A stretch of DNA of 64,000 nucleotides from an uncultured Chelatococcus sp. (GTDB lineage: Bacteria; Pseudomonadota; Alphaproteobacteria; Rhizobiales; Beijerinckiaceae), in contig CALMIK010000063.1 in assembly GCA_937863995.1 (NCBI GenBank), forward strand, positions 1 through 64,000. The letters run 5' to 3'. Below are positions 1 to 42,861 of this stretch, one piece after another (position 1 is the first letter of the stretch; the number at the start of each line of letters is the position of its first letter). A program made the translations under genes and the position numbers. The notes below the pieces were generated by a model that saw only the letters and a list, made by a program, of their open reading frames with translations, was not told the DNA's origin and did not search any database.

Positions 1-58
1 TCTGTCCGCGCAGAGCGTCGCCGATATCGATGTTCTTTCCGGATATCCGTAAGGGCAT
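1..58 (-). CDS. hpf: Ribosome hibernation promoting factor, N-terminal fragment (cut by window edge)
   Basis: Only the first 19 codons lie in the window, and the gene continues past base 1. The visible start reads MPLRISGKNIDIGDALRGQ, which matches the opening of long-form alphaproteobacterial HPF proteins that dimerise and silence 70S ribosomes in stationary phase. A good Shine-Dalgarno (AGGAG) lies about 6 bases before the ATG at 58. Its place directly downstream of rpoN on the same strand is the usual order in this group (rpoN-hpf-ptsN), which supports the call. Domain content beyond the first strand cannot be seen. Confidence 0.8.
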   Translation of the reverse strand, partial: MPLRISGKNIDIGDALRGQ

Positions 59-295
59 TCGCTTCTCCTTCCCCTTGAAACCCGTCATGCTCGCATTGAA
101 ACAGGACAGGTTCCAGATTCCTTGCTTGAGCGAATTCTGACCGATCGGATGAGGCCACCAGACCGGAAAGCGCTCGCGCGCGCCGGGTGTTCGTGCCGCC
201 GGATGACCTCACGGCGTCCGGCAGGCCCCGCGCGCTCCTGAAGTTTAAGTCGGCTGACAATCGCCGGCCAGCATTATTTGTGTGCCTTCAGGCAA

Positions 296-1936
296 CTATC
301 CCGCATTGACGTTCTTCGCCGCCAGCGCCCGGCGGCGGTCGACGGAGGAGGGCAGGCGCAGGGATTCCCGGTATTTGGCGACCGTGCGCCGGGCGATGTC
401 GATGCCCTCGTCGTGCAGTTTCTTGACGAGCGCGTCGTCGGACAGCACGTCGCGGGGCGTTGCCTCGGTGGCGATGAGCTGGCGGATGCGATGGCGCACG
501 GCTTCCGCCGCGTGGGTGTCGCCGCCGTCGGCGGCCTGCACGGCGGCGGAGAAAAAGTACTTCATCGGCAGCACGCCGCGCGCGCAGCCGATCGCCTTGT
601 TGGCGGTGACGCGCGAGATGGTCGATTCGTGCATGCCGATCGCCTCGGCGATGGTCTTGAGATTGAGCGGCCGCAGGTGCGAGGCGCCCTGGGTGAAAAA
701 GCCCTCCTGCAGGCGCACGATCTCGCTCGCTACCTTGAGCACCGTGCGCGCGCGCTGCTCCAGGCTGCGCGTCAGCCAGTCGCCGCTCTGCAGGCATTCG
801 GACAGGAAGGTGCGGTCGGCCTCGGAGCGCGCGCCCGACATCAGCTTGGCGTGGTAGGCGCGGTTGAGCAGCACGCGGGGCAGGGTGCCGTCGTTGAGCT
901 CCACCACGAAGCCGCCGTCGCGCGTCGCGCGCACGAAGACGTCGGGCACGAGGGTCTGCGCCGTTTCCGCGCCGAAGGCGCGCGCCGGCTTGGGATCGAG
1001 CCGGCGCAGCTCCGCCAGCATCTCGGCAAGGTCTTCCTGGTCGACGCCGCATAGCCGGCGCAACGCCGCGTGGTCGTGGCGGGCGACCAGCGCGAGATTG
1101 GCGACGAGCGCCTGCATGGCGGGGTCGAACCGGTCGCGCTCGCGCAGTTGCAGCGCCAGGCATTCGGCAAGGTCGCGCGCGCCGACGCCCGTGGGCTCCA
1201 GCCCCTGCACGAGATCGAGCACCCGCGCGACGGCCTCCTCCGATACCGAGAGGCGGGCGGCGATGTCCGCTGTCGTCTCGCGCAGATAGCCGGCGCCGTC
1301 GATGGCGTCGATGAGGAAGCGCCCGATGAGGCGCTGCTGCGGATCGGCCGTCACGAGATCGAGCTGGGTGGACAGATGATCGTAGAGCGATACGTCCGCA
1401 GCGAGCGTGGCCTCGATGCCGGGCGCGTCGTCGTGGTCGTGGCTCCCCGCGCCGCCGTGGGGCGGGCCGGAGGACACCATCAGCCCCTCGTCGGCGGCGC
1501 TCGGCTCGCGGGTGCCGGCGGCGGCGCCCGTGCCGTCTTCCTGGAACAGGTTGTCGAAGGAGGTGCCGAAATCGGCCTCGATGGATGCGCGCTCGAGTTG
1601 CGGTTCAGCCGGCGACCAGTCGCGCGCGCGCTCATCGTCGCTTCCCGGGTCACTCCCCGGGTCACTTCCTTGGTCGCTTGGCTGGTCATTTCCCTGCGGC
1701 GCGCCGTCCGTCTCCGGCGTCTCGCTGCCTTCCCGCCCCTGATCGGCGCTGCCTTCGGCGGTGCTTCCGGGTTCGCCTTCCACGTAGTCCAGCAAGGGAT
1801 TGCGCTCGATCTCGGCGTCGACGTGGGCGGCAAGCTCGAGGTGCGACAGTTGCAGCAGGCGGATGGCCTGCAGCAGCTGCGGCGTCATGGCCAGTGTCTG
1901 GCTCTGGCGCAACTCCAACCGGTGGGACAGTCCCAT
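296..1936 (-). CDS. rpoN: RNA polymerase sigma-54 factor RpoN
   Basis: Alternative sigma factor that recognises -24/-12 promoters and needs enhancer-binding ATPases. The 546-residue product opens with the glutamine-rich region I (MGLSHRLELRQSQTLAMTPQ), followed by an acidic, low-complexity linker (about residues 45-140, rich in Asp, Glu, Gly and Ser), the core-binding region, a helix-turn-helix (ESTISRVTANK) and the C-terminal RpoN box (ARRTVAKYRE) near the end. I place the start at the ATG at 1936. The open frame runs 50 codons further upstream, but that part has no family similarity. It lies 200 bases after lptB and before hpf on the same strand, the conserved Hyphomicrobiales order. It is longer than the enterobacterial protein because of the acidic linker. 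Confidence 0.95.
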   Translation of the reverse strand: MGLSHRLELRQSQTLAMTPQLLQAIRLLQLSHLELAAHVDAEIERNPLLDYVEGEPGSTAEGSADQGREGSETPETDGAPQGNDQPSDQGSDPGSDPGSDDERARDWSPAEPQLERASIEADFGTSFDNLFQEDGTGAAAGTREPSAADEGLMVSSGPPHGGAGSHDHDDAPGIEATLAADVSLYDHLSTQLDLVTADPQQRLIGRFLIDAIDGAGYLRETTADIAARLSVSEEAVARVLDLVQGLEPTGVGARDLAECLALQLRERDRFDPAMQALVANLALVARHDHAALRRLCGVDQEDLAEMLAELRRLDPKPARAFGAETAQTLVPDVFVRATRDGGFVVELNDGTLPRVLLNRAYHAKLMSGARSEADRTFLSECLQSGDWLTRSLEQRARTVLKVASEIVRLQEGFFTQGASHLRPLNLKTIAEAIGMHESTISRVTANKAIGCARGVLPMKYFFSAAVQAADGGDTHAAEAVRHRIRQLIATEATPRDVLSDDALVKKLHDEGIDIARRTVAKYRESLRLPSSVDRRRALAAKNVNAG

Positions 1937-2139
1937 CTGCGATTCCCGCCTGATTCTGTGGCCGGCTGCCGGCATGCGTCCGGTCCGGCAACGGATCGCG
2001 GCGATGGCCCGTCGCGTTCTCGGGCCTCGGCGGTATCGCTTTTGCTGCGGGTATCGGTGGGCACAACGGCGAATGCCTGCCGGCACGTTTCTTGCTTGCA
2101 GGTGCTTCCACGCTTTTCTAGCGCCTTTGCGCGCTCACG

Positions 2140-2988
2140 TCAAAGCTGGAAATCCTCGCCGAGATAGAGCCGGCGGACATCGGGGCTGGCGATGATCTCG
2201 GCGGGCGTGCCTTCCATCAGCACCCGGCCGGAATGGATGATGTAGGCGCGGTCGATGAGGCCCAGCGTCTCGCGCACGTTGTGATCGGTGATGAGCACGC
2301 CGATGCCGCGCCGGGTGAGGTGGCGCACCAGGTTCTGGATGTCGCCGACCGCGATCGGGTCGATGCCGGCGAAGGGCTCGTCGAGCAGCATGAAGGTCGG
2401 GTCGCCGGCGAGCGCGCGCGCGATCTCGCAGCGCCGGCGCTCGCCGCCGGACAGGGCGATGGAGGGCGCCTTGCGCAGCCGCGCGATGTCGAATTCCTCC
2501 AGCAGCGCGTCGAGCTTCTTGTCGCGCTCCTTGCGGCTTGGCTCCACCACTTCCAGCACCGCGCGCAGGTTTTCCTCGACGGTGAGGCCGCGAAAGATCG
2601 ACGCTTCCTGCGGCAGGTAGCCGATGCCCAGCCGCGCGCGCCGATACATGGGCAGGCGCGTGATGTCGTGGCCCTCGAGCGTGATGGTGCCGAGGTCGGC
2701 GGCCACGAGGCCGGTGATCATGTAAAAGATGGTGGTCTTGCCGGCGCCGTTGGGACCGAGCAGCCCCACCGCCTCGCCCTTGCGCACGTGAAGCCCCGCG
2801 CCCTGCACCACCGTGCGGCCGCGATAGCTCTTTTGCAGGCCGTCCACCGCGAGCACGCCCGCCTGCGAATGGCTCTGCGCCTGCGGCAGCCCGCCGGCGC
2901 GTGCGGCCGGGGACGGCGCGCGCCCGGTGAGGTCCGAGGCGTGCAGGCCGGCGTTGTCGTCGAGGGTGTCGAAGGGCTGCGCTGGCAT
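2140..2988 (-). CDS. lptB: LPS export ABC transporter ATPase LptB
   Basis: Cytoplasmic ATPase that powers extraction of lipopolysaccharide from the inner membrane with LptFG and delivers it to LptC and LptA. The 282-residue protein shows Walker A GPNGAGKTT, the Q-loop region, signature LSGGERRR, Walker B MLLDEPFAGIDP and the switch histidine in ITDHN, in the expected order. About 45 N-terminal residues before the ABC core are extra and low in complexity, common in alphaproteobacterial LptB. The start is chosen at the ATG at 2988; a TTG two codons upstream (2994) is also possible and no strong ribosome site separates them. It sits between lptA and rpoN in one minus-strand transcription unit. 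Confidence 0.94.
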   Translation of the reverse strand: MPAQPFDTLDDNAGLHASDLTGRAPSPAARAGGLPQAQSHSQAGVLAVDGLQKSYRGRTVVQGAGLHVRKGEAVGLLGPNGAGKTTIFYMITGLVAADLGTITLEGHDITRLPMYRRARLGIGYLPQEASIFRGLTVEENLRAVLEVVEPSRKERDKKLDALLEEFDIARLRKAPSIALSGGERRRCEIARALAGDPTFMLLDEPFAGIDPIAVGDIQNLVRHLTRRGIGVLITDHNVRETLGLIDRAYIIHSGRVLMEGTPAEIIASPDVRRLYLGEDFQL

Positions 2989-3091
2989 GGTCAAGCTGTT
3001 CGGGTTGACGGCCGCGGGGCAGGGCGCCCGCGGAGCCGAGGAGAATAGGGCCGCGCGGAGCCTGGCCGCGCGGACAGGTGACCGGCCCGCA

Positions 3092-3787
3092 TCAGCGTCC
3101 CGGCGGGTTGCCGCTGCCCGGCACGAACACGCCCTGCACCCGGCCGCCGGGGCGGGCGATGCAATTGGCGACGCTGGTGTCGAGGCTGTAGACGATCCGG
3201 TCGCACTGCTGGACGTTCTTTTCCTGGCTGAGCAGCACGTTGCCGGTGAGGGTCACGGTGTTGCTGACCCGGTCGAACACGGCGTGCTGGCCGGTGGCGG
3301 TCTGGGCGCCGGACACCACGGTGACCGGCCCCTGGCAATCGAGCTTGCGGATGTTGTTGTCGCCCTCGGCCTGCGCGCCCTGCCCCTTCGGCTGAGGCTT
3401 GGCTTCCGCCTTGGCCTCAGGCTTGGTCGTACCGGCGGCGCCGGCCGCGCTCTGCTCGTAGAACACGTTGAGCGACGAGCAGCGCAGCGTCGTCTCGCCC
3501 TGCACGGCGACGACGTTGCCGGTGAAGGTGGCGCGCTTTTCGGCGTCGAACACGTCGAGGCGGTCGGCATCGATCTTGATCGGGTCCTTGCCGGTGCCGA
3601 GCCCGCCGAGCGGCGAGCTCGGCGGCGCGGCGTTCTGCGCCCATGCGCCCACGCCGGGAAACAGCATCACGCCCGCCGCGATCAGCGCGGCGGCGACGGC
3701 GCCGCTAGCGGGCACGAGCCGCTCCACGATACGTTTGCCCGAGGTACCCGTATGTGGAGTACGCTGGCCCGAAGCCGTCTGCCGCAT
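3092..3787 (-). CDS. lptA: LPS transport periplasmic bridge protein LptA (OstA-like)
   Basis: Periplasmic protein that carries lipopolysaccharide from LptC towards the outer-membrane LptDE complex. The N-terminus has a basic stretch, a hydrophobic run (AVAAALIAAGVMLFPGVGAWA) and a likely signal-peptidase site at AWA-Q. The mature part contains the OstA/LptA beta-jellyroll repeats (for example IKIDADRLDVFDAEKRATFT and ADNIR-type strands), interrupted by an Ala/Lys/Glu-rich low-complexity insert near the middle. I prefer the ATG at 3787 (231 residues), because a GGATGGGG ribosome site lies about 7 bases upstream; the ATG at 3799 has none at proper spacing. It lies between lptC and lptB on the same strand. 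Confidence 0.88.
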   Translation of the reverse strand: MRQTASGQRTPHTGTSGKRIVERLVPASGAVAAALIAAGVMLFPGVGAWAQNAAPPSSPLGGLGTGKDPIKIDADRLDVFDAEKRATFTGNVVAVQGETTLRCSSLNVFYEQSAAGAAGTTKPEAKAEAKPQPKGQGAQAEGDNNIRKLDCQGPVTVVSGAQTATGQHAVFDRVSNTVTLTGNVLLSQEKNVQQCDRIVYSLDTSVANCIARPGGRVQGVFVPGSGNPPGR

Positions 3788-3850
3788 GATTCGCCCCATC
3801 CTGTATCGTCCGCGTGCCCGTGTCTCGCGCGTGCCCGTGTCGCGCGCGTG

Positions 3851-4543
3851 TCAGCGCTGCGCTTCCTCGGCGCCGTCGAGGACGGTGCGCACCCTGCCTT
3901 CAAAGACGATATGCTTGCCATTGTCCGAAATGTCGAGCCTGTCCGCTGAAATCGTGCCCTGGGAAATCGTCACGACGACCGGTTCGTCCGACACCACGCG
4001 CCCGCCCTTGAAGTCCACCGAGGCGGAGGAAAGCCGCGCGTCGTAGCCGTTGTCGGTGCGCACCCTCACGTCGCCGGTGAGCTTGAGGTGCTCGCTCTGC
4101 GAATCATACAGGCCGGTGGCGGCATTGATGTTGGCCTTGCCGCCGCCGTCGAGCTGCACGTGGCCGGAGATGTCGTTGAGCTCCACGATGGAGGGATTGC
4201 GCACGTCCTGGGTGGCGGAAGCCGCCGTGACCTCATATGGCTGGGTGCCGTCGCGAAAACCGGTCAGCCGGGGCGCGTCCATGGTGATCTTGGAGCCGGA
4301 CAGCGATACCGGGCCGAGGCTGAGGCCGCCGATGCTGCTGAGCGGCTTGAGGAAAGCGATGCCCGCGACCACCAGCACAGCGACGAAGGCCGCCAGCGGA
4401 ATGAGGCGTTTCAGCGTCCGCACACGCGCGGAATGGCGCATCGCGGCGCGGTAGGCGGCCGGCGAAACGCCGGCGACCTGCGGGCCCGCCGATGCCGGGG
4501 GCCGGGGCGCGAGAGGAGCGGGCGTATGGTCGGCGTCGGTCAA
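3851..4543 (-). CDS. lptC: LPS export ABC transporter periplasmic protein LptC
   Basis: Bitopic inner-membrane protein that receives lipopolysaccharide from LptB2FG and passes it to LptA. The 230-residue product has a Pro/Ala-rich cytoplasmic leader, one hydrophobic segment (about residues 46-65, LIPLAAFVAVLVVAGIAFL) and a periplasmic LptC/OstA-like beta domain with repeated strand motifs such as LDISDNGKHIVFEGRVRT near the C-terminus. The initiation codon appears to be TTG at 4543 with GGAAG a few bases upstream; no ATG lies before residue 35. It is first of the lptC-lptA-lptB-rpoN-hpf cluster, 52-64 bases before lptA. Confidence 0.87.
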   Translation of the reverse strand: MTDADHTPAPLAPRPPASAGPQVAGVSPAAYRAAMRHSARVRTLKRLIPLAAFVAVLVVAGIAFLKPLSSIGGLSLGPVSLSGSKITMDAPRLTGFRDGTQPYEVTAASATQDVRNPSIVELNDISGHVQLDGGGKANINAATGLYDSQSEHLKLTGDVRVRTDNGYDARLSSASVDFKGGRVVSDEPVVVTISQGTISADRLDISDNGKHIVFEGRVRTVLDGAEEAQR

Positions 4544-4678: not shown

Positions 4679-5293
4679 TCACATGTGGGCGAAAATGTCG
4701 CTCTCCGGCCAGCCGGCGAGGTCGAGCCGCGCGCGGGTGGGCAGGAACTCGAAGCATGCGCGCGCGATGTCGGTGCGGTCCTCGCGGGCGAGCATCGTGT
4801 CGAGCTTCTGCTTGAGGGCGTGCAGGTGCAGCACGTCCGACGCCGCGTAGGCGAGCTGGGCGTCGGAGAGCGTTTCCGCCGCCCAGTCCGAGGACTGCTG
4901 CTGCTTGGAGATCTCGACGCCGAGAAGTTCCCGCAGGTTGTCCTTCAGGCCGTGGCGGTCGGTGTAGGTGCGGCTGAGCTTGGAGGCGATCTTGGTGCAA
5001 TAGACCGGCCCGGGCATGACGCCGAAGGCGTGGAACAGCACCGCGAGATCGAAGCGGGCGAAGTGGAAGATCTTGAGCACGCGGTCGTCGCCGAGCAGGC
5101 GCATCAGGTTTTCCGGGCGCGGCCCGCCGCGCCGGATCTGCACCACGTCCGCCGAGCCGTCGCCGCCGGAAAGCTGCACCACGCACAGCCTGTCGCGATG
5201 GGGATTGAGCCCCAGCGTTTCGGTGTCTATGGCGACCGAATCACCATAGTCGAAATCGGCGGGCAGGTCGCCCCGGTGCAGCGTGATGGTCAT
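4679..5293 (-). CDS. Short ribonuclease D-type 3'-5' exonuclease
   Basis: DEDDy-family exonuclease domain acting on RNA 3' ends or, by analogy, on structured DNA/RNA. The 204-residue protein consists of the exonuclease domain only and lacks the HRDC domain of full-length RNase D. The four acidic residues and the tyrosine can be placed: AIDTETLGL (DxE), FHFARFDLA (D) and YAASDVLHL (Yx3D). The start at 5293 has AAGGACG upstream. It is encoded 135 bases before lptC on the same strand, the usual position in Hyphomicrobiales. Many genomes in this order carry both this short form and a longer Rnd, so I give no symbol. Confidence 0.85.
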   Translation of the reverse strand: MTITLHRGDLPADFDYGDSVAIDTETLGLNPHRDRLCVVQLSGGDGSADVVQIRRGGPRPENLMRLLGDDRVLKIFHFARFDLAVLFHAFGVMPGPVYCTKIASKLSRTYTDRHGLKDNLRELLGVEISKQQQSSDWAAETLSDAQLAYAASDVLHLHALKQKLDTMLAREDRTDIARACFEFLPTRARLDLAGWPESDIFAHM

Positions 5294-5962: not shown

Positions 5963-7522
5963 ATGACGGATCAACTTCCCATTGACCAATTGCTCGTCAG
6001 GCTGCGGCGCGAGGCTGCGGCTTTCAATGTTCCGACGCTCGACGCGACGCCGCGCCGCGCCGACCTGGAGGATGCCGCGACGGCGGCGGACGGTGCCCGC
6101 ACCAGCATCCGCGTCGAGGCGCTGGAGATGCAACTCGCGTCAATCAACGCTCTGCTGGAGGACCTGCGGTCCGCCCAGCGCGCGCAGGCCGCGGCCATCT
6201 CCTTGCAGCAGGACCGCGTCACCGCCATCGGGCGGATGGAGGTCGACATCCGCGTCCTGCGCGAGGGCGTGCGGACATCCGGCGCGGCGCTCGCCTCCCT
6301 GTCGTCGGAAGCGCGCGATGCTGAGCGGCGGGAGGCGGGGCTGCAGGAGGCTGGGGCGAACGGCGCTCCCGATCTCGATATTCCCCCCGTTCCGCTGGGA
6401 GATGTGAGCTACTGGCCCAGGCTCCTGCTGGAGCAGGGCGACGAATTCCTCAAGGCCGCCTACCGGGTGCTGCTCGACCGCGACATCGATTCCGGCGGTC
6501 TCGACGGCTATCGCGCCCAGCTCGCCGCCGGGCGGGGGGCGCTGGAAGTTCTGTGCGACATCACGCTGTCGGACGAGTTCCAGCGGCGTGAGGTGGACGA
6601 TGCCGGCCTTCGCACCTATCGCGGCGTCTACAAGCGCGCGCGCAGGCTAGAGCGCATGCCGCTGCTGCGGTTCCTCGCCCGCCTGCCGCGTGGCCGGCTG
6701 CAGCGCGCGGAAAGCAGCATCCGTGCCTCCCTGGCCGCCGAAATCGCGCTTGCGGCGCGCGATCATGTGAACGCGCTCGCCCGCGAGGCGCGCTCCGGCA
6801 GGGCAATCGACGCTGCCGCCGAGCTGGCCGGAGATCCCTGCCTCGACGCTTTTTATCTTGCCTTTGAGGACGCCATGCGCGGCCCCGAGGACGACATCCG
6901 GGCAGGCCTGACGGTCTATCTCGACGCCGTCGCGGCGGCGACGCAGCGGGCCGGCGGGCCGGTTCTCGATCTCGGCTGCGGGCGCGGCGAGTGGCTGTCG
7001 TTGCTGCGTGACAGCGGCCACGCCGCGCGGGGTATCGATCTCAGCCCGACCATGGTGGAGCTTTGCTGCTCCCGCGGGCACGACGTCACCCTCAGCGATG
7101 CGCTCGCGGCGCTGCGGGCGCTGCCCGATAACAGCCTGTCGGTGGTGAGCGGCTTCCACATCATCGAGCATCTGCCGTTCCCGGTGCTGTTCGCGGTGTT
7201 CGCCGAGGCGCACCGCGTTCTGCAGCCGGGCGGGCTCGTGCTGTTCGAGACCCCCAATCCCGAGAACCTGCTGGTGGGGGCGCACACATTCTACCACGAT
7301 CCCACCCATCGCCACCCGCTGACGCCCTCCAGCATGACTTTCCTGGCGAAGTTCCACGGGTTCGAGGATATCGAGATCGTCCGCCAGCGTCCCTACCCGC
7401 CGGAAGCGCTGGTCGAGCCCGGCACGCCCGCTGCCGACCGGCTCAACTGCCATCTCTACGGTCCGCAGGACTACGCCATCCTGGCGCGCAAGCGCGGCGG
7501 CGCGGATGAGGCTGCCGGATGA
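5963..7522 (+). CDS. Coiled-coil / DUF4214 / SAM-dependent methyltransferase protein
   Basis: Three-part protein of 519 residues. Residues about 50-125 are rich in heptad-like Leu/Ala/Glu/Gln/Arg and probably form a coiled coil. Residues about 150-212 (AYRVLLDRDIDSGGLDGYRA) match the DUF4214 domain found in surface-glycan and extracellular matrix proteins. The C-terminal half is a class I methyltransferase with motif I VLDLGCGRGEW at about 333, GIDLSPTMVE and FHIIEHL, ending in the FETPNPENL/YHDPTHRHP region typical of glycan-modifying enzymes. The layout recalls chain-terminating methyltransferases of O-antigen synthesis that use a coiled coil as a length ruler, but this role is inference. 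The start at 5963 has GTGGGA upstream; ATG 5915 is an alternative. Its stop overlaps the next gene (ATGA at 7519). Confidence 0.82.
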   Translation: MTDQLPIDQLLVRLRREAAAFNVPTLDATPRRADLEDAATAADGARTSIRVEALEMQLASINALLEDLRSAQRAQAAAISLQQDRVTAIGRMEVDIRVLREGVRTSGAALASLSSEARDAERREAGLQEAGANGAPDLDIPPVPLGDVSYWPRLLLEQGDEFLKAAYRVLLDRDIDSGGLDGYRAQLAAGRGALEVLCDITLSDEFQRREVDDAGLRTYRGVYKRARRLERMPLLRFLARLPRGRLQRAESSIRASLAAEIALAARDHVNALAREARSGRAIDAAAELAGDPCLDAFYLAFEDAMRGPEDDIRAGLTVYLDAVAAATQRAGGPVLDLGCGRGEWLSLLRDSGHAARGIDLSPTMVELCCSRGHDVTLSDALAALRALPDNSLSVVSGFHIIEHLPFPVLFAVFAEAHRVLQPGGLVLFETPNPENLLVGAHTFYHDPTHRHPLTPSSMTFLAKFHGFEDIEIVRQRPYPPEALVEPGTPAADRLNCHLYGPQDYAILARKRGGADEAAG

Positions 7523-8541
7523 GGCTCATCGTCACCGCCAACGCCACGCCGTTCCTGACCGGTGGCGCGACCTACCATTTCGACGGGCTGGTCGCCGCGC
7601 TGCGCGAGCGGGGGCACGACGTGGAGACGCTGCGCTTTCCCTTCACATTCCACCCCGAGGAATCGATCCTCAGGCTGATGGACTGGTGCGAGACGCTCGA
7701 TCTCGAGGCTCCCAACGGCCAGCGCGTCGACAAGGTCATCAGCCTGCAGTTTCCCGGCTACGGCGTGCGCCATCCCCGCCACGTGGTGTGGATCATGCAC
7801 CAGCACCGCATCGTCTACGACCTCTATCCCGATGAGCCGGAAGAGGCGGTGCAGCGGCTGCACGAGCTGATTCCCCCCTTCGACAACCGTGTGCTGGCGC
7901 TGGCGGAGCGCCTCTTCGCCAACTCGCGCAACGTCAGCGCGCGGCTGTCGCGGTTCAACGGGCTGGCGGCGGAACCGCTGTACCACCCGCCGCCGCTCGC
8001 CGGGCACTTCAGGCAGGGCGAGGCCTTGAACTACGTATTCATGCCAAGCCGCATGGAGACGCTGAAGCGCCAAGGGCTGGTGCTGGAGGCGGCGCGGCTG
8101 TGGCGCGCGCCGGTCACCTGCGTGCTGGCGGGCCGCGGCGGCCTGCTGGAAACCAACAAACGCTTCATTGCCGAGCACGATCTCGGCGAGCGCGTCGTCA
8201 TCCTCGAAGATTGCCCGGACGCCGAAAAGCTCGCCCTCTACGCCAACTGTCTGGGTGTGCTCTATCCGCCCCGCGACGAGGATTATGGATACGTCACGCT
8301 GGAGGCGCAGCTCGCCGGAAAGCCTGTCGTCACCTGCGACGATTCGGGCGGGCCGCTCGAACTGATCGAGGACGGCGCGACCGGCTTCGTCGTGGCGCCC
8401 ACGGCCCAGGCCATCGCCGACGCCGTGGACCGGCTGTGGGACGACCGCGAAGGGGCGCGCGAGATGGGCCGGCTCGGGCTCGCCCGCTATCAGGAACGCG
8501 GCATCTCGTGGGACGACGTCGTCGACCGCCTGACCGAATGA
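7519..8541 (+). CDS. GT4-family glycosyltransferase
   Basis: Retaining, GT-B fold glycosyltransferase of 340 residues, likely adding a sugar to a surface glycan from a nucleotide-sugar donor. The C-terminal donor-binding half is clear, with DEDYGYVTLEA (the E-x7-E signature, about residues 254-262) followed by GKPVVTCDDSGGPLELIEDG. The N-terminal acceptor half contains GGATYHFDGLVAAL and HVVWIMHQHRIVYDLYP. The start overlaps the preceding methyltransferase stop by four bases, so translation is probably coupled. It is visibly paralogous to the first half of the next gene (shared HVV-MH-R-YD and DEDYG-VTLEA blocks). Acceptor and sugar are unknown. Confidence 0.88.
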   Translation: MRLIVTANATPFLTGGATYHFDGLVAALRERGHDVETLRFPFTFHPEESILRLMDWCETLDLEAPNGQRVDKVISLQFPGYGVRHPRHVVWIMHQHRIVYDLYPDEPEEAVQRLHELIPPFDNRVLALAERLFANSRNVSARLSRFNGLAAEPLYHPPPLAGHFRQGEALNYVFMPSRMETLKRQGLVLEAARLWRAPVTCVLAGRGGLLETNKRFIAEHDLGERVVILEDCPDAEKLALYANCLGVLYPPRDEDYGYVTLEAQLAGKPVVTCDDSGGPLELIEDGATGFVVAPTAQAIADAVDRLWDDREGAREMGRLGLARYQERGISWDDVVDRLTE

Positions 8542-8557
8542 CAAGGGACGCGCGAAG

Positions 8558-10969
8558 ATGAAGATTGCCGTGATCGCCCCGAGCCCGGTGCCGTTCGCCT
8601 TCGGCGGCGCCGAGCGTCTTTGGCTTGGCCTGACGAATCATTTCGTCAACGACACCCGCCACGTCTGCGAGCTGCTCAAGGTGCCGTCGCCCGAGCGCGA
8701 TTTCTACGAGATCGTCGATTCCTACCGCCGTTTCTCTGCGCTCGACCTGTCGCAGTTCGACATGGTGATCTCGGGCAAGTATCCGGCCTGGATGGCGGCG
8801 CACCCCAACCACGTGGTTTACATGCTGCACCGGCTGCGCGGCCTCTACGACACCTGGCCGGGCGACATGACCACGGCCCTGCCGGACGATGCCCTGCTCG
8901 CGCCGCTCAGGCGGCTGCTCGAGCATTCTTCGGTCGAGCGGTCGCTGCTGCCCGATATTTTCGGCGCCATCGTTAATCTTCTGGCCGCCGCCCCCCCGCG
9001 CGAATGGCTGGCGCTGCCCGCCCCGCTCATCCGCGCCGTGGTGCACAAGCTCGACGCCATCGGCCTCGCGCCGGAGCGGATCGGCAAGTACGTCTCCATT
9101 TCGCATAACGTGCGCGCCCGCGACGGCTATTTCCCGCCCCATGTCGAAGTGGAGGTGGCGCACGTGCCCTCCGACCTCGGCCTTGCCTTGTTGCGCGGAG
9201 AGGGCGAGGGCGAAGACGCGGATGCCGTCACCGGCCTCGACGGCGTCGCGCCGACCTTCTTCACCGTCAGCCGCCTCGACCACGCCAAGCGGCTCGCGCT
9301 CGTCATCAACGCCTTCCGGCAAGTGGAGGGCGACGCCCGCCTCGTCATCGCCGGCGACGGCCCCCAGCGCCATGAACTCACCCTGCGGGCCAAGGGCGAC
9401 AACCGCATCGTGTTTGCCGGCCGGCTCTCCGAGCAGGAGCTGGCGCGCCACTACCGCACGGCGCTGGCCGTTCCCTTCGTGCCCTACGACGAGGACTATG
9501 GCCTCGTCACGCTGGAAGCGCTGGCGGCGGGGCGGCCCGTGGTGACGGTGACGGACGCTGGCGGCGTGCTGGAATTCGTCGAGGACGGTGTCACCGGCCT
9601 GGTGGCCGAGCCCGACGCGGCCTCGCTCACCGGCGCTTTCGCGGCGCTGCTCGCCGAGCCCGCGCGGGCGCTGGCCATGGGGGCGGCGGGGCGCGAGCGC
9701 GTGCGGCGGGTGACATGGAGCCGGCTCGGCGCGGCGCTCGTCCTGCCTTCAGGCGCGCGGTCGCGCCGACGCATCGTGATGGCCAACACCTATCCGCTCT
9801 GGCCCGTGGATACCGGCGGCAAGCGGCGTCTGTGGGCGCTGGCGCGCGCACTTTCCGCCCGGGCGGACGTCACCATGGTGTCGCTGCTGCGCCACGACGA
9901 CAAGGCCGAGACGATAACCTTCTCGCCATACCTGCGCGAGATCCGCATTCCGATCTCGCGCCCGCACATCGAGGCGGAGTGGGTGCTGACGAAGGCGCTC
10001 GACGAAACGTCGGTGTCCGACATATCGGCGACGCTCTACGGCCATCTGACGCCGGACCTTCCCCGCATCCTGCGCCGGCAGCTCGCGGGGGCTTCGCTGG
10101 CCATCGCGAGCCATCCCTATCTCTACCGCTTCCTGCGCGCCGCTTTCGACGGGCCGGTCTGGTACGACGCGCACAATGTCGAGACGCAGCTGAAGGACGC
10201 CATCCTGCCCCGGTCGCCCGCCGGACGCGCGGTGCTTGCGGAGGTGGCGGCGCTGGAGCGCGATTGCGTCGCCGGCAGTGCGCGCGTGCTCACCGTCAGC
10301 GAGGCGGAGCGGCAGGTGTTCCGCGACATGTTCGGCAAGGACGAGGACGCCATCGCGGTGGTGCCCAACGGCGCCGACCTGCCGGAAGATCCGCATCTGG
10401 AGCGGGACCGGCGGGAGGCGCTGAAGGCGCGACTCGGCGTCGAGGGGCCGCTGGCGCTCTTCGTCGGCAGTTGGCACGCGCCCAATGTCGAGGCGGCGCT
10501 GGCGCTCATCGACATCGCCCGCGAATGCCCGCAATGGACGTTCTGGCTCGTGGGCAAGATGAACGCCGCCGCCGAGCTGCAGGCGGTGACGCCGCCTGCG
10601 AACGTGCGCATTCTCGGGCCGGTCGGCGAGGCGGAAATGCAGACGATCTTCGCCGCCGCCGATGTCGGCATCAACCCGGTGGTGCAGGGCGCGGGCACCA
10701 ACCTGAAGGTGATCGATTACGCCGCCAACGGGGCGCTGGTCATCACGACGCCGCAGGGGCTTGCCGGGCTTGGCGGCGCGGAGGTGCCTGGCGGCGGCCT
10801 TACCGACGGCGTGCACGTTCTCGTTCGCGAGCGCTGGCAAATGGCGGACGCGTTGCGGCACATCGCCAACGTGGGCATCGCGACCTGCGACCCCATCACC
10901 GCCGCCGCCTTCGCCTACGTGCGCGAGCACCTGACATGGCAGGCGATCGTGCAGCGGATCGGCTTCTGA
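8558..10969 (+). CDS. Double-domain glycosyltransferase (two fused GT4 modules)
   Basis: Single 803-residue protein with two glycosyltransferase modules and no transmembrane segment. Module 1 (about 1-400) opens with IAVIAPSPVPFAFGGAERLW and carries the E-x7-E donor motif in DEDYGLVTLEALAAG (about 312-320). Module 2 (about 406-803) restarts with a new N-terminal Rossmann segment, IVMANTYPLWPVDTGGKRR, and ends with GTNLKVIDYAANG (about 713), a variant of the GT4 C-terminal motif. A short basic linker (GARSRRR) joins them. The gene starts 16 bases after the previous one in the same operon. Two successive sugar transfers by one polypeptide are likely but not proven. The encoded chain is continuous, so this is not a frameshift artefact. 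Confidence 0.87.
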   Translation: MKIAVIAPSPVPFAFGGAERLWLGLTNHFVNDTRHVCELLKVPSPERDFYEIVDSYRRFSALDLSQFDMVISGKYPAWMAAHPNHVVYMLHRLRGLYDTWPGDMTTALPDDALLAPLRRLLEHSSVERSLLPDIFGAIVNLLAAAPPREWLALPAPLIRAVVHKLDAIGLAPERIGKYVSISHNVRARDGYFPPHVEVEVAHVPSDLGLALLRGEGEGEDADAVTGLDGVAPTFFTVSRLDHAKRLALVINAFRQVEGDARLVIAGDGPQRHELTLRAKGDNRIVFAGRLSEQELARHYRTALAVPFVPYDEDYGLVTLEALAAGRPVVTVTDAGGVLEFVEDGVTGLVAEPDAASLTGAFAALLAEPARALAMGAAGRERVRRVTWSRLGAALVLPSGARSRRRIVMANTYPLWPVDTGGKRRLWALARALSARADVTMVSLLRHDDKAETITFSPYLREIRIPISRPHIEAEWVLTKALDETSVSDISATLYGHLTPDLPRILRRQLAGASLAIASHPYLYRFLRAAFDGPVWYDAHNVETQLKDAILPRSPAGRAVLAEVAALERDCVAGSARVLTVSEAERQVFRDMFGKDEDAIAVVPNGADLPEDPHLERDRREALKARLGVEGPLALFVGSWHAPNVEAALALIDIARECPQWTFWLVGKMNAAAELQAVTPPANVRILGPVGEAEMQTIFAAADVGINPVVQGAGTNLKVIDYAANGALVITTPQGLAGLGGAEVPGGGLTDGVHVLVRERWQMADALRHIANVGIATCDPITAAAFAYVREHLTWQAIVQRIGF

Positions 10970-11035: not shown

Positions 11036-11132
11036 CGGGAGGTTGGCGTTGGACGTTCCACTCGCCAACCGGGTCAGGTCCGGAAGGAAGCAGCCCTAAC
11101 GAGACCGGGCGGGTCTTCGTCCAGCCTCCCAC
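11036..11132 (+). ncRNA. ffs: Signal recognition particle 4.5S-type RNA
   Basis: Small bacterial SRP RNA that binds Ffh to target membrane proteins. The universally conserved domain IV core is present (GGTCAGGTCCGGAAGG followed by AAGCAGCCCTA, 11072-11099). The ends pair: GGGAGG at 11037-11042 with CCTCCC at 11125-11130, continued by TTGG..ACG with CGTCCAG. A CCTTTT follows the 3' end at 11132-11136 and may help termination. It lies directly upstream of dnaX, the usual location in this order. Ends are inferred from pairing and are good to a few bases. Confidence 0.93.
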
Positions 11133-11164
11133 CTTTTGCGAGCCCGGATCGGGGCTGCGCTGTC

Positions 11165-42684: not shown

Positions 42685-42774
42685 CGACTGTCACTCGCTG
42701 GCGCCGCGATGGCGGCGTTCGTGCAGTCATGCGGATCGGAAGGCCGCGCGGCGACCGTGAGCGGACCTGTCTCG

Positions 42775-42857
42775 CTTCCCTCCGCCGGCATGACCCGGTT
42801 CAGGTTCGATGGGTTGGCGCACGCGCCTCTCAGCCCTCGCGGGCACCCCAAGGAGAT
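42775..42857 (-). promoter_or_regulatory. TPP riboswitch (THI element) controlling thiE-thiD
   Basis: Read on the minus strand it has the full THI-box signature: GGGGTGCC, GGGCTGAGAG, ACCC, GAACCTGAACCGGGTCATGCC and GGAGGGAAGC. The closing helix P1 can pair TCTCCTT (42850-42856) with GGAGGGA (42777-42783). It lies about 90 bases before thiE. A GC-rich segment between them (near 42700-42720, CGCCGC/GCGGCG) could form the alternative hairpin that hides the start in the presence of thiamine pyrophosphate. Confidence 0.95.
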
Positions 42858-42861
42858 ACGC

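What the first reader, a model, noticed from the sequence alone, without database searches (positions are those of the whole stretch)
5963..10969. Compact glycan patch: coiled-coil/DUF4214/methyltransferase plus three GT4 modules
Three overlapping or nearly overlapping plus-strand genes encode a coiled coil joined to DUF4214 and a methyltransferase, a GT4 transferase and a double GT4 protein. No polymerase, flippase, ABC exporter or sugar-nucleotide gene is present. Known chain-terminating methyltransferases use a coiled coil to set glycan length; here DUF4214 sits between coil and enzyme, where the known ones have a kinase or nothing. The set could build and cap a short glycan on a protein or lipid acceptor.
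Basis: partly seen in the sequence, partly recalled or inferred. Interest (0 to 1): 0.6.

Follow-up and report, generated by a model that had tools for sequence, protein, structure and literature searches.

The report
Orphaned methyl-capped polysaccharide assembly genes
Three neighbouring genes that probably build a sugar chain and stop it with a methyl cap are the assembly half of a gene set found in many bacterial phyla, but this genus lacks the cap-recognising export pump that often accompanies them, and its capping enzyme has its spacer rod in an unusual place.

Summary
Three plus-strand genes (MT 5963-7522, GT4 7519-8541, double GT4 8558-10969) are real; AlphaFold gives a 90-residue helix, then DUF4214, then a class I methyltransferase. 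They lie between rnd and ffs-dnaX, also in Pseudochelatococcus lubricantis; the double GT is in none of 38 other family genomes. MT-GT4-doubleGT4 is the assembly half of a widespread cassette, Wzm-Wzt-MT-GT4-doubleGT4 (Proteobacteria, Cyanobacteria, Acidobacteria, Bacillota), laid out like the E. coli O9 cluster. DUF4214 is a normal part of this enzyme class, not an oddity here. Two things are unusual in this genus: no cap-reading Wzt C-terminal domain was found in either genome (31 of 32 loci with MT and Wzt have it), and the coil precedes DUF4214 (in 36 of 38 DUF4214-bearing relatives it lies mainly between DUF4214 and the methyltransferase). MT and double-GT trees both place the pair in a mainly gammaproteobacterial clade, suggesting joint acquisition. 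Activity, sugar, acceptor and exporter are untested; "short" and "protein acceptor" are unsupported.

The parts
5963..7522 (+). Coiled-coil / DUF4214 / class I SAM methyltransferase (519 aa); proposed chain terminator
   Evidence: Pfam; AF2 pLDDT 84; homologues in the same gene order
6068..6337 (+). N-terminal 90-residue helix, predicted coiled coil (aa 36-125)
   Evidence: AF2 helix 36-125; uncalibrated heptad scan 42-130
6404..6586 (+). DUF4214 helical domain (about aa 148-208)
   Evidence: PF13946 27.9 bits; AF2 helices 148-208; session HMM 149-209
6659..6793 (+). Second helix between DUF4214 and the methyltransferase (aa 233-277)
   Evidence: AF2
6836..7492 (+). Methyltransferase domain (about aa 292-510); nearest structure 3dli
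   Evidence: Pfam; phmmer 8e-32; Foldseek 1e-19, TMt 0.89
7519..8541 (+). GT4 glycosyltransferase (340 aa)
   Evidence: PF00534 88.6 bits; 41-42% identity to the cassette GT of rhizobial plasmids
8558..10969 (+). Double GT4 glycosyltransferase (803 aa), proposed polymerase; modules about 8558-9742 and 9770-10966
   Evidence: Two GT4 stretches; 34-38% identity over the full length to cassette homologues
4679..5293 (-). rnd-like gene: left border, conserved flank
11037..11133 (+). ffs (small SRP RNA): right border, followed by dnaX
   Evidence: Rfam RF00169 54.8 bits

Best explanation
The trio is the glycan-assembly half of an O8/O9-like, chain-terminated ABC-transporter polysaccharide cassette. 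The double GT4 protein is the likely polymerase, working on a lipid-linked chain; the single GT4 is the likely adaptor or second polymerase. The methyltransferase ends the chain by methylating its non-reducing sugar; the coil holds the enzyme at a distance and so sets chain length; DUF4214 is the likely docking domain for the polymerase. The donor is probably GDP-mannose or GDP-D-rhamnose from ManC and GMD/RMD-like enzymes encoded elsewhere. In Pseudochelatococcus the trio was acquired as a unit, without (or having since lost) the cap-reading Wzm/Wzt pair, and fixed at rnd-ffs-dnaX; export would then use the genome's only detected Wzm/Wzt, whose Wzt lacks the cap-reading domain, or an unknown route. 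Shown: genes, domains, predicted helix, gene-order conservation, no detectable Wzt C-terminal domain, tree placement. Inferred: polymerase, cap and ruler roles, DUF4214 docking, donor sugar, exporter.
For: MT-GT4-doubleGT4 in the same order and orientation on three rhizobial plasmids, in islands with Wzm/Wzt and, on one, GMD/RMD and ManC. A double-GT4 search gave 79 loci in many phyla; 33 of 56 informative ones have MT+GT upstream, and of these 18 also have Wzt upstream and 6 convergent downstream. 31 of 32 loci with MT and Wzt have a Wzt C-terminal domain. E. coli HS O9 has Wzm-Wzt-WbdD-WbdA(double GT4)-GT4-WbdC; two rhizobial cassette Wzm and Wzt are 40-45% and 37-38% identical to it. Long helix in the models of the window protein and of a relative. 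No PF14524 in G000 or G680. Both trees put the window and P. lubricantis in one strongly supported, mainly gammaproteobacterial clade. dN/dS (NG86) about 0.32 double GT, 0.21 GT, 0.39 MT domain. Literature: coil as ruler with the terminator at its far end (PMC11231755); methylated terminus read by the Wzt carbohydrate-binding domain (PMC9445017).
Against: No activity, sugar or product is known. MT, GT and double GT resemble WbdD, WbdB/C and WbdA only at superfamily level. There is no kinase. No cap-reading transporter was found in this genome, so a cap would have no known reader. The other Wzm here has relatives in family members that lack the trio, so it is not trio-specific. In this genus the main coil is not between DUF4214 and the enzyme, which weakens a simple ruler reading.
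Confidence: 0.6

Rival explanations
1. Protein glycosylation: the trio builds and caps a glycan on type I-secreted DUF4214 surface proteins, and the DUF4214 in the methyltransferase recognises that partner.
For: Cassettes on rhizobial plasmids, and the MT in Roseomonas, lie among DUF4214 proteins and T1SS genes. The own genome has several further DUF4214 ORFs, one with RTX repeats beside a T1SS and GT genes on contig C16.
Against: No DUF4214 surface protein or T1SS lies at the trio. Among 79 double-GT loci at most 12 have a T1SS hit within the fetched stretch, against 36 with Wzt. No oligosaccharyltransferase was looked for.
Confidence: 0.15
2. Accessory decoration: the trio adds a side branch or methylated tail to an O-polysaccharide made and exported by the separate ManC/Wzt/Wzm locus, whose Wzt has no cap-reading domain.
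For: That locus is present with the same gene order in both species, its Wzt has ABC_tran only, and related Wzm genes occur in 16 family genomes without the trio, so the basic polymer need not need the trio.
Against: Elsewhere the trio is often found with a full cap-dependent exporter, and a double GT4 next to a coiled-coil MT fits polymerase plus terminator.
Confidence: 0.15
3. Decaying remnant of a horizontally acquired cassette with no present function.
For: No cap-reading exporter; the N-terminal part of the MT is only 44% identical between the two species.
Against: All three frames are open in two species at the same site, and dN/dS is well under 1, though NG86 is rough at this G+C content.
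Confidence: 0.07

Closest known systems
E. coli O9 (strain HS) cluster Wzm-Wzt-WbdD-WbdA-WbdB-WbdC
   Same: Coiled-coil protein with a methyltransferase next to a double-GT4 polymerase and GT4 enzymes; rhizobial cassette Wzm/Wzt are homologous to its transporter (40-45% and 37-38%).
   Different: WbdD is methyltransferase-kinase-coil with the enzyme at the N-terminus; here coil-DUF4214-methyltransferase and no kinase. MT and GT similarity is superfamily level only. No cap-reading Wzt domain was found in the window's genome.
A. aeolicus methyl-capped O antigen with cap-reading WzmWzt (PMC9445017)
   Same: The mechanism proposed here: a methylated mannose or rhamnose terminus marks the chain for export.
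   Different: No cap-reading domain found in the window's genome; the cap itself is not demonstrated.
K. pneumoniae O7 ORF6 terminator/polymerase (PMC11231755)
   Same: A coiled-coil protein joins a methylating terminator to polymerising GT modules.
   Different: GT2 rather than GT4 modules, a kinase and a predicted CBM in the protein, enzyme at the N-terminal end.
A. fulgidus methyltransferase 3dli
   Same: Closest solved methyltransferase domain (profile E 3.6e-75; Foldseek TMt 0.89).
   Different: The solved chain is a methyltransferase domain only, of unknown function.

Membership tests
Chain-terminated ABC-transporter glycan assembly (O8/O9/O12 type) | Terminator enzyme joined to an extended coiled coil | tested here: met
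   AF2 helix of 90 residues plus MT domain; monomer prediction only, terminator role inferred
Chain-terminated ABC-transporter glycan assembly (O8/O9/O12 type) | Polymerising GT modules encoded alongside | tested here: met
   GT4 and double GT4 directly downstream; polymerase activity untested
Chain-terminated ABC-transporter glycan assembly (O8/O9/O12 type) | Wzm/Wzt whose Wzt carries the cap-reading C-terminal domain | tested here: not met
   No PF14524 match at E up to 1 in G000 or G680; G524, which has the Wzt-MT pair, scored 110.9 bits in the same search. G000 is 97% complete.
Chain-terminated ABC-transporter glycan assembly (O8/O9/O12 type) | Terminator held at the far end of the coil from the polymerase | tested here: inconclusive
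   Main coil precedes DUF4214 here but lies between DUF4214 and MT in 36 of 38 relatives; geometry of any complex unknown
[quoted passage not shown]
   Needs glycan chemistry
WbdD proper (O9/O9a methyltransferase-kinase) | Kinase domain | tested here: not met
   No kinase family in the window protein; the E. coli HS protein at the WbdD position shows APH/Pkinase matches
MT-GT4-doubleGT4 cassette (defined here by gene order) | Full-length double-GT4 homology with MT and GT upstream on the same strand | tested here: met
T1SS/DUF4214 surface-protein glycosylation | T1SS or DUF4214 surface protein beside the GT genes | tested here: not met
   None beside the trio; such loci exist on other contigs

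The most novel reading that the evidence does not exclude
DUF4214 is a docking domain of a broad class of kinase-free, C-terminal chain-terminating methyltransferases, and in Pseudochelatococcus this machinery runs without a cap-reading exporter, with the coil moved in front of DUF4214, so that capping no longer licenses export.
Probability: 0.3. Interest if true: 0.7.

Novelty: new variant of a known kind. Interest (0 to 1): 0.5.

Why it matters
Known rulers of glycan length join a terminator to a coil. This cassette suggests a third part, DUF4214, a domain of unassigned function shared with many surface proteins, and offers a natural comparison to test it: coil after DUF4214 with a cap-reading exporter, against coil before DUF4214 without one. 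If the genus still makes a capped polymer, the rule that a terminal cap is read by Wzt would need qualification.

Tried and rejected
A genome-contig scan with the MT alone found nothing; the double-GT alignment was used instead, so all co-occurrence rates are conditional on the double GT. The idea that DUF4214 is peculiar to this window was rejected. A specific link of the trio to the Wzm/Wzt locus without the C-terminal domain was not supported by co-occurrence in the family. RMD-like matches also occur in family genomes without the double GT, so the donor sugar stays an inference. P. aeruginosa PA5455-5459 (common polysaccharide antigen) came to mind from memory; two paper searches were made, no paper found there was opened, and no sequence comparison was possible. 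Rhamnose 'biofilm plasmids' of roseobacters likewise came from memory and the paper searches were not followed up. A search for DUF4214 found four papers, none on glycan termination by its title; one was checked and treats a surface protein. A profile search does list WbdD among weak PDB matches (E about 0.001), which is superfamily level. The coil scan is home-made with thresholds chosen by me; AlphaFold checked it for two proteins only.

Full report
What is there. The window lies on contig C63 of a 3.53 Mb, 99-contig genome. The nearest relative of the trio is in Pseudochelatococcus lubricantis (L020). Its rnd coordinates (52801 + 7110 - 1 = 59910) coincide with those of same-genus genome G680, so I take the window's organism to belong to that genus; this is an inference. 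Three plus-strand genes run 5963-7522, 7519-8541 and 8558-10969. They sit between rpoN-lptB-lptA-lptC-rnd and ffs-dnaX-ybaB-recR, with the same order in P. lubricantis. G+C of the trio matches its flanks (69.4% against 69.4% and 70.4%).

The methyltransferase protein. Pfam finds DUF4214 and a class I methyltransferase. AlphaFold with 44 aligned sequences gives a helix at 36-125, DUF4214 helices at 148-208, a helix at 233-277 and the methyltransferase at 292-510; mean pLDDT 84.2 (best of five models) and pTM 0.54, so the placement of domains relative to each other is not fixed. A relative from Tianweitania (L039) instead has a 96-residue helix at 156-251, after DUF4214 and before the enzyme. 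Over 49 relatives, 38 have DUF4214, both by Pfam at E up to 0.01 and by a session HMM built from some of the same proteins; in 36 of these the predicted coil lies mainly between DUF4214 and the enzyme, and only the two Pseudochelatococcus proteins have it mainly in front. The coil measure is home-made and uncalibrated. The closest solved structure is A. fulgidus 3dli.

The gene set elsewhere. Three rhizobial plasmids carry MT-GT4-doubleGT4 in the same order; Wzm/Wzt lie in the same island, from directly downstream to about 18 kb away, and one also has GMD/RMD and ManC. A search with the double-GT alignment gave 79 loci from many phyla. Of 56 with at least 4.5 kb upstream, 33 have both MT and GT directly upstream, 5 GT only, 5 MT only, 13 neither. 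Of the 33, 18 also have Wzt upstream, 6 have it convergent downstream, and 9 have none in those two positions. Absence next door is therefore not rare: in the Rhizobium plasmid of L019 the transporter lies about 18 kb off. What stands out here is absence from the genome. Of ten Wzt proteins scanned with Pfam, the eight from MT-bearing cassettes have the Wzt C-terminal domain, while L058 (no MT found) and G680's own Wzt do not. With a session HMM, 31 of 32 loci with MT and Wzt have it, and so do three of four with Wzt and no MT, so the contrast is only suggestive.

Known counterpart. E. coli HS (O9) has Wzm, Wzt, a 708-residue methyltransferase protein, WbdA, a GT4 and WbdC. I read the 708-residue protein as WbdD and the GT4 as WbdB from position and domains; the record names neither. 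WbdA has two GT4 stretches and the WbdD-position protein has methyltransferase and kinase matches. Two rhizobial cassette Wzm and Wzt are 40-45% and 37-38% identical to the O9 pair; MT and GT similarity is superfamily level. Published work describes coiled-coil terminators as rulers (PMC11231755, sections read), WbdD as regulator of O9a chain length (PMC3482155, abstract only), and a methylated terminus read by the Wzt carbohydrate-binding domain (PMC9445017).

What is different here. Neither genome of the genus has a PF14524 match at E up to 1, while G524, which has the Wzt-MT pair, scores 110.9 bits in the same search. Each has one detected Wzm beside a Wzt of 251-258 residues without that domain, next to ManC. 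Related Wzm genes occur in 16 other family genomes, all without the double GT. G000 is 97% complete, so absence is not absolute. GMD and RMD-like genes are adjacent on another contig in both species.

History. Trees of the double GT (818 columns) and of the MT domain (221 columns) both put the window and P. lubricantis in a well-supported, mainly gammaproteobacterial group (100/99 and 100/100), apart from the rhizobial group. This fits joint acquisition; the branch leading to the pair is long in the double-GT tree, so the donor is uncertain. The double GT is in 2 of 40 family genomes, both of this genus. dN/dS by NG86 between the two species is about 0.32 (double GT), 0.21 (GT), 0.39 (MT domain) and 0.57 (N-terminal part of MT).

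Reading. The best explanation is a coil-spaced, chain-terminating methyltransferase with its polymerase, now separated from a cap-reading exporter. Catalysis, donor, acceptor, chain length, docking by DUF4214 and export are inferred.

Noticed in passing
window 42759-42860: TPP riboswitch on the minus strand, just upstream of thiE/thiD-like genes.
   Followed up: no
L142 (G000 C64), 1-4061: Another DUF4214 ORF, GT4 and GT4/GT2 group in the own genome; the 388-aa GT4 is 38% identical to the N-terminal module of a cassette double GT.
   Followed up: partly
L141 (G000 C16): Locus with ManC, GTs, a DUF4214/RTX protein, type I secretion genes and further glycan-type genes.
   Followed up: partly
L052 and L058: Two cassette-like loci whose Wzt lacks a detectable C-terminal domain; L052 has an MT, L058 has none found.
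   Followed up: no
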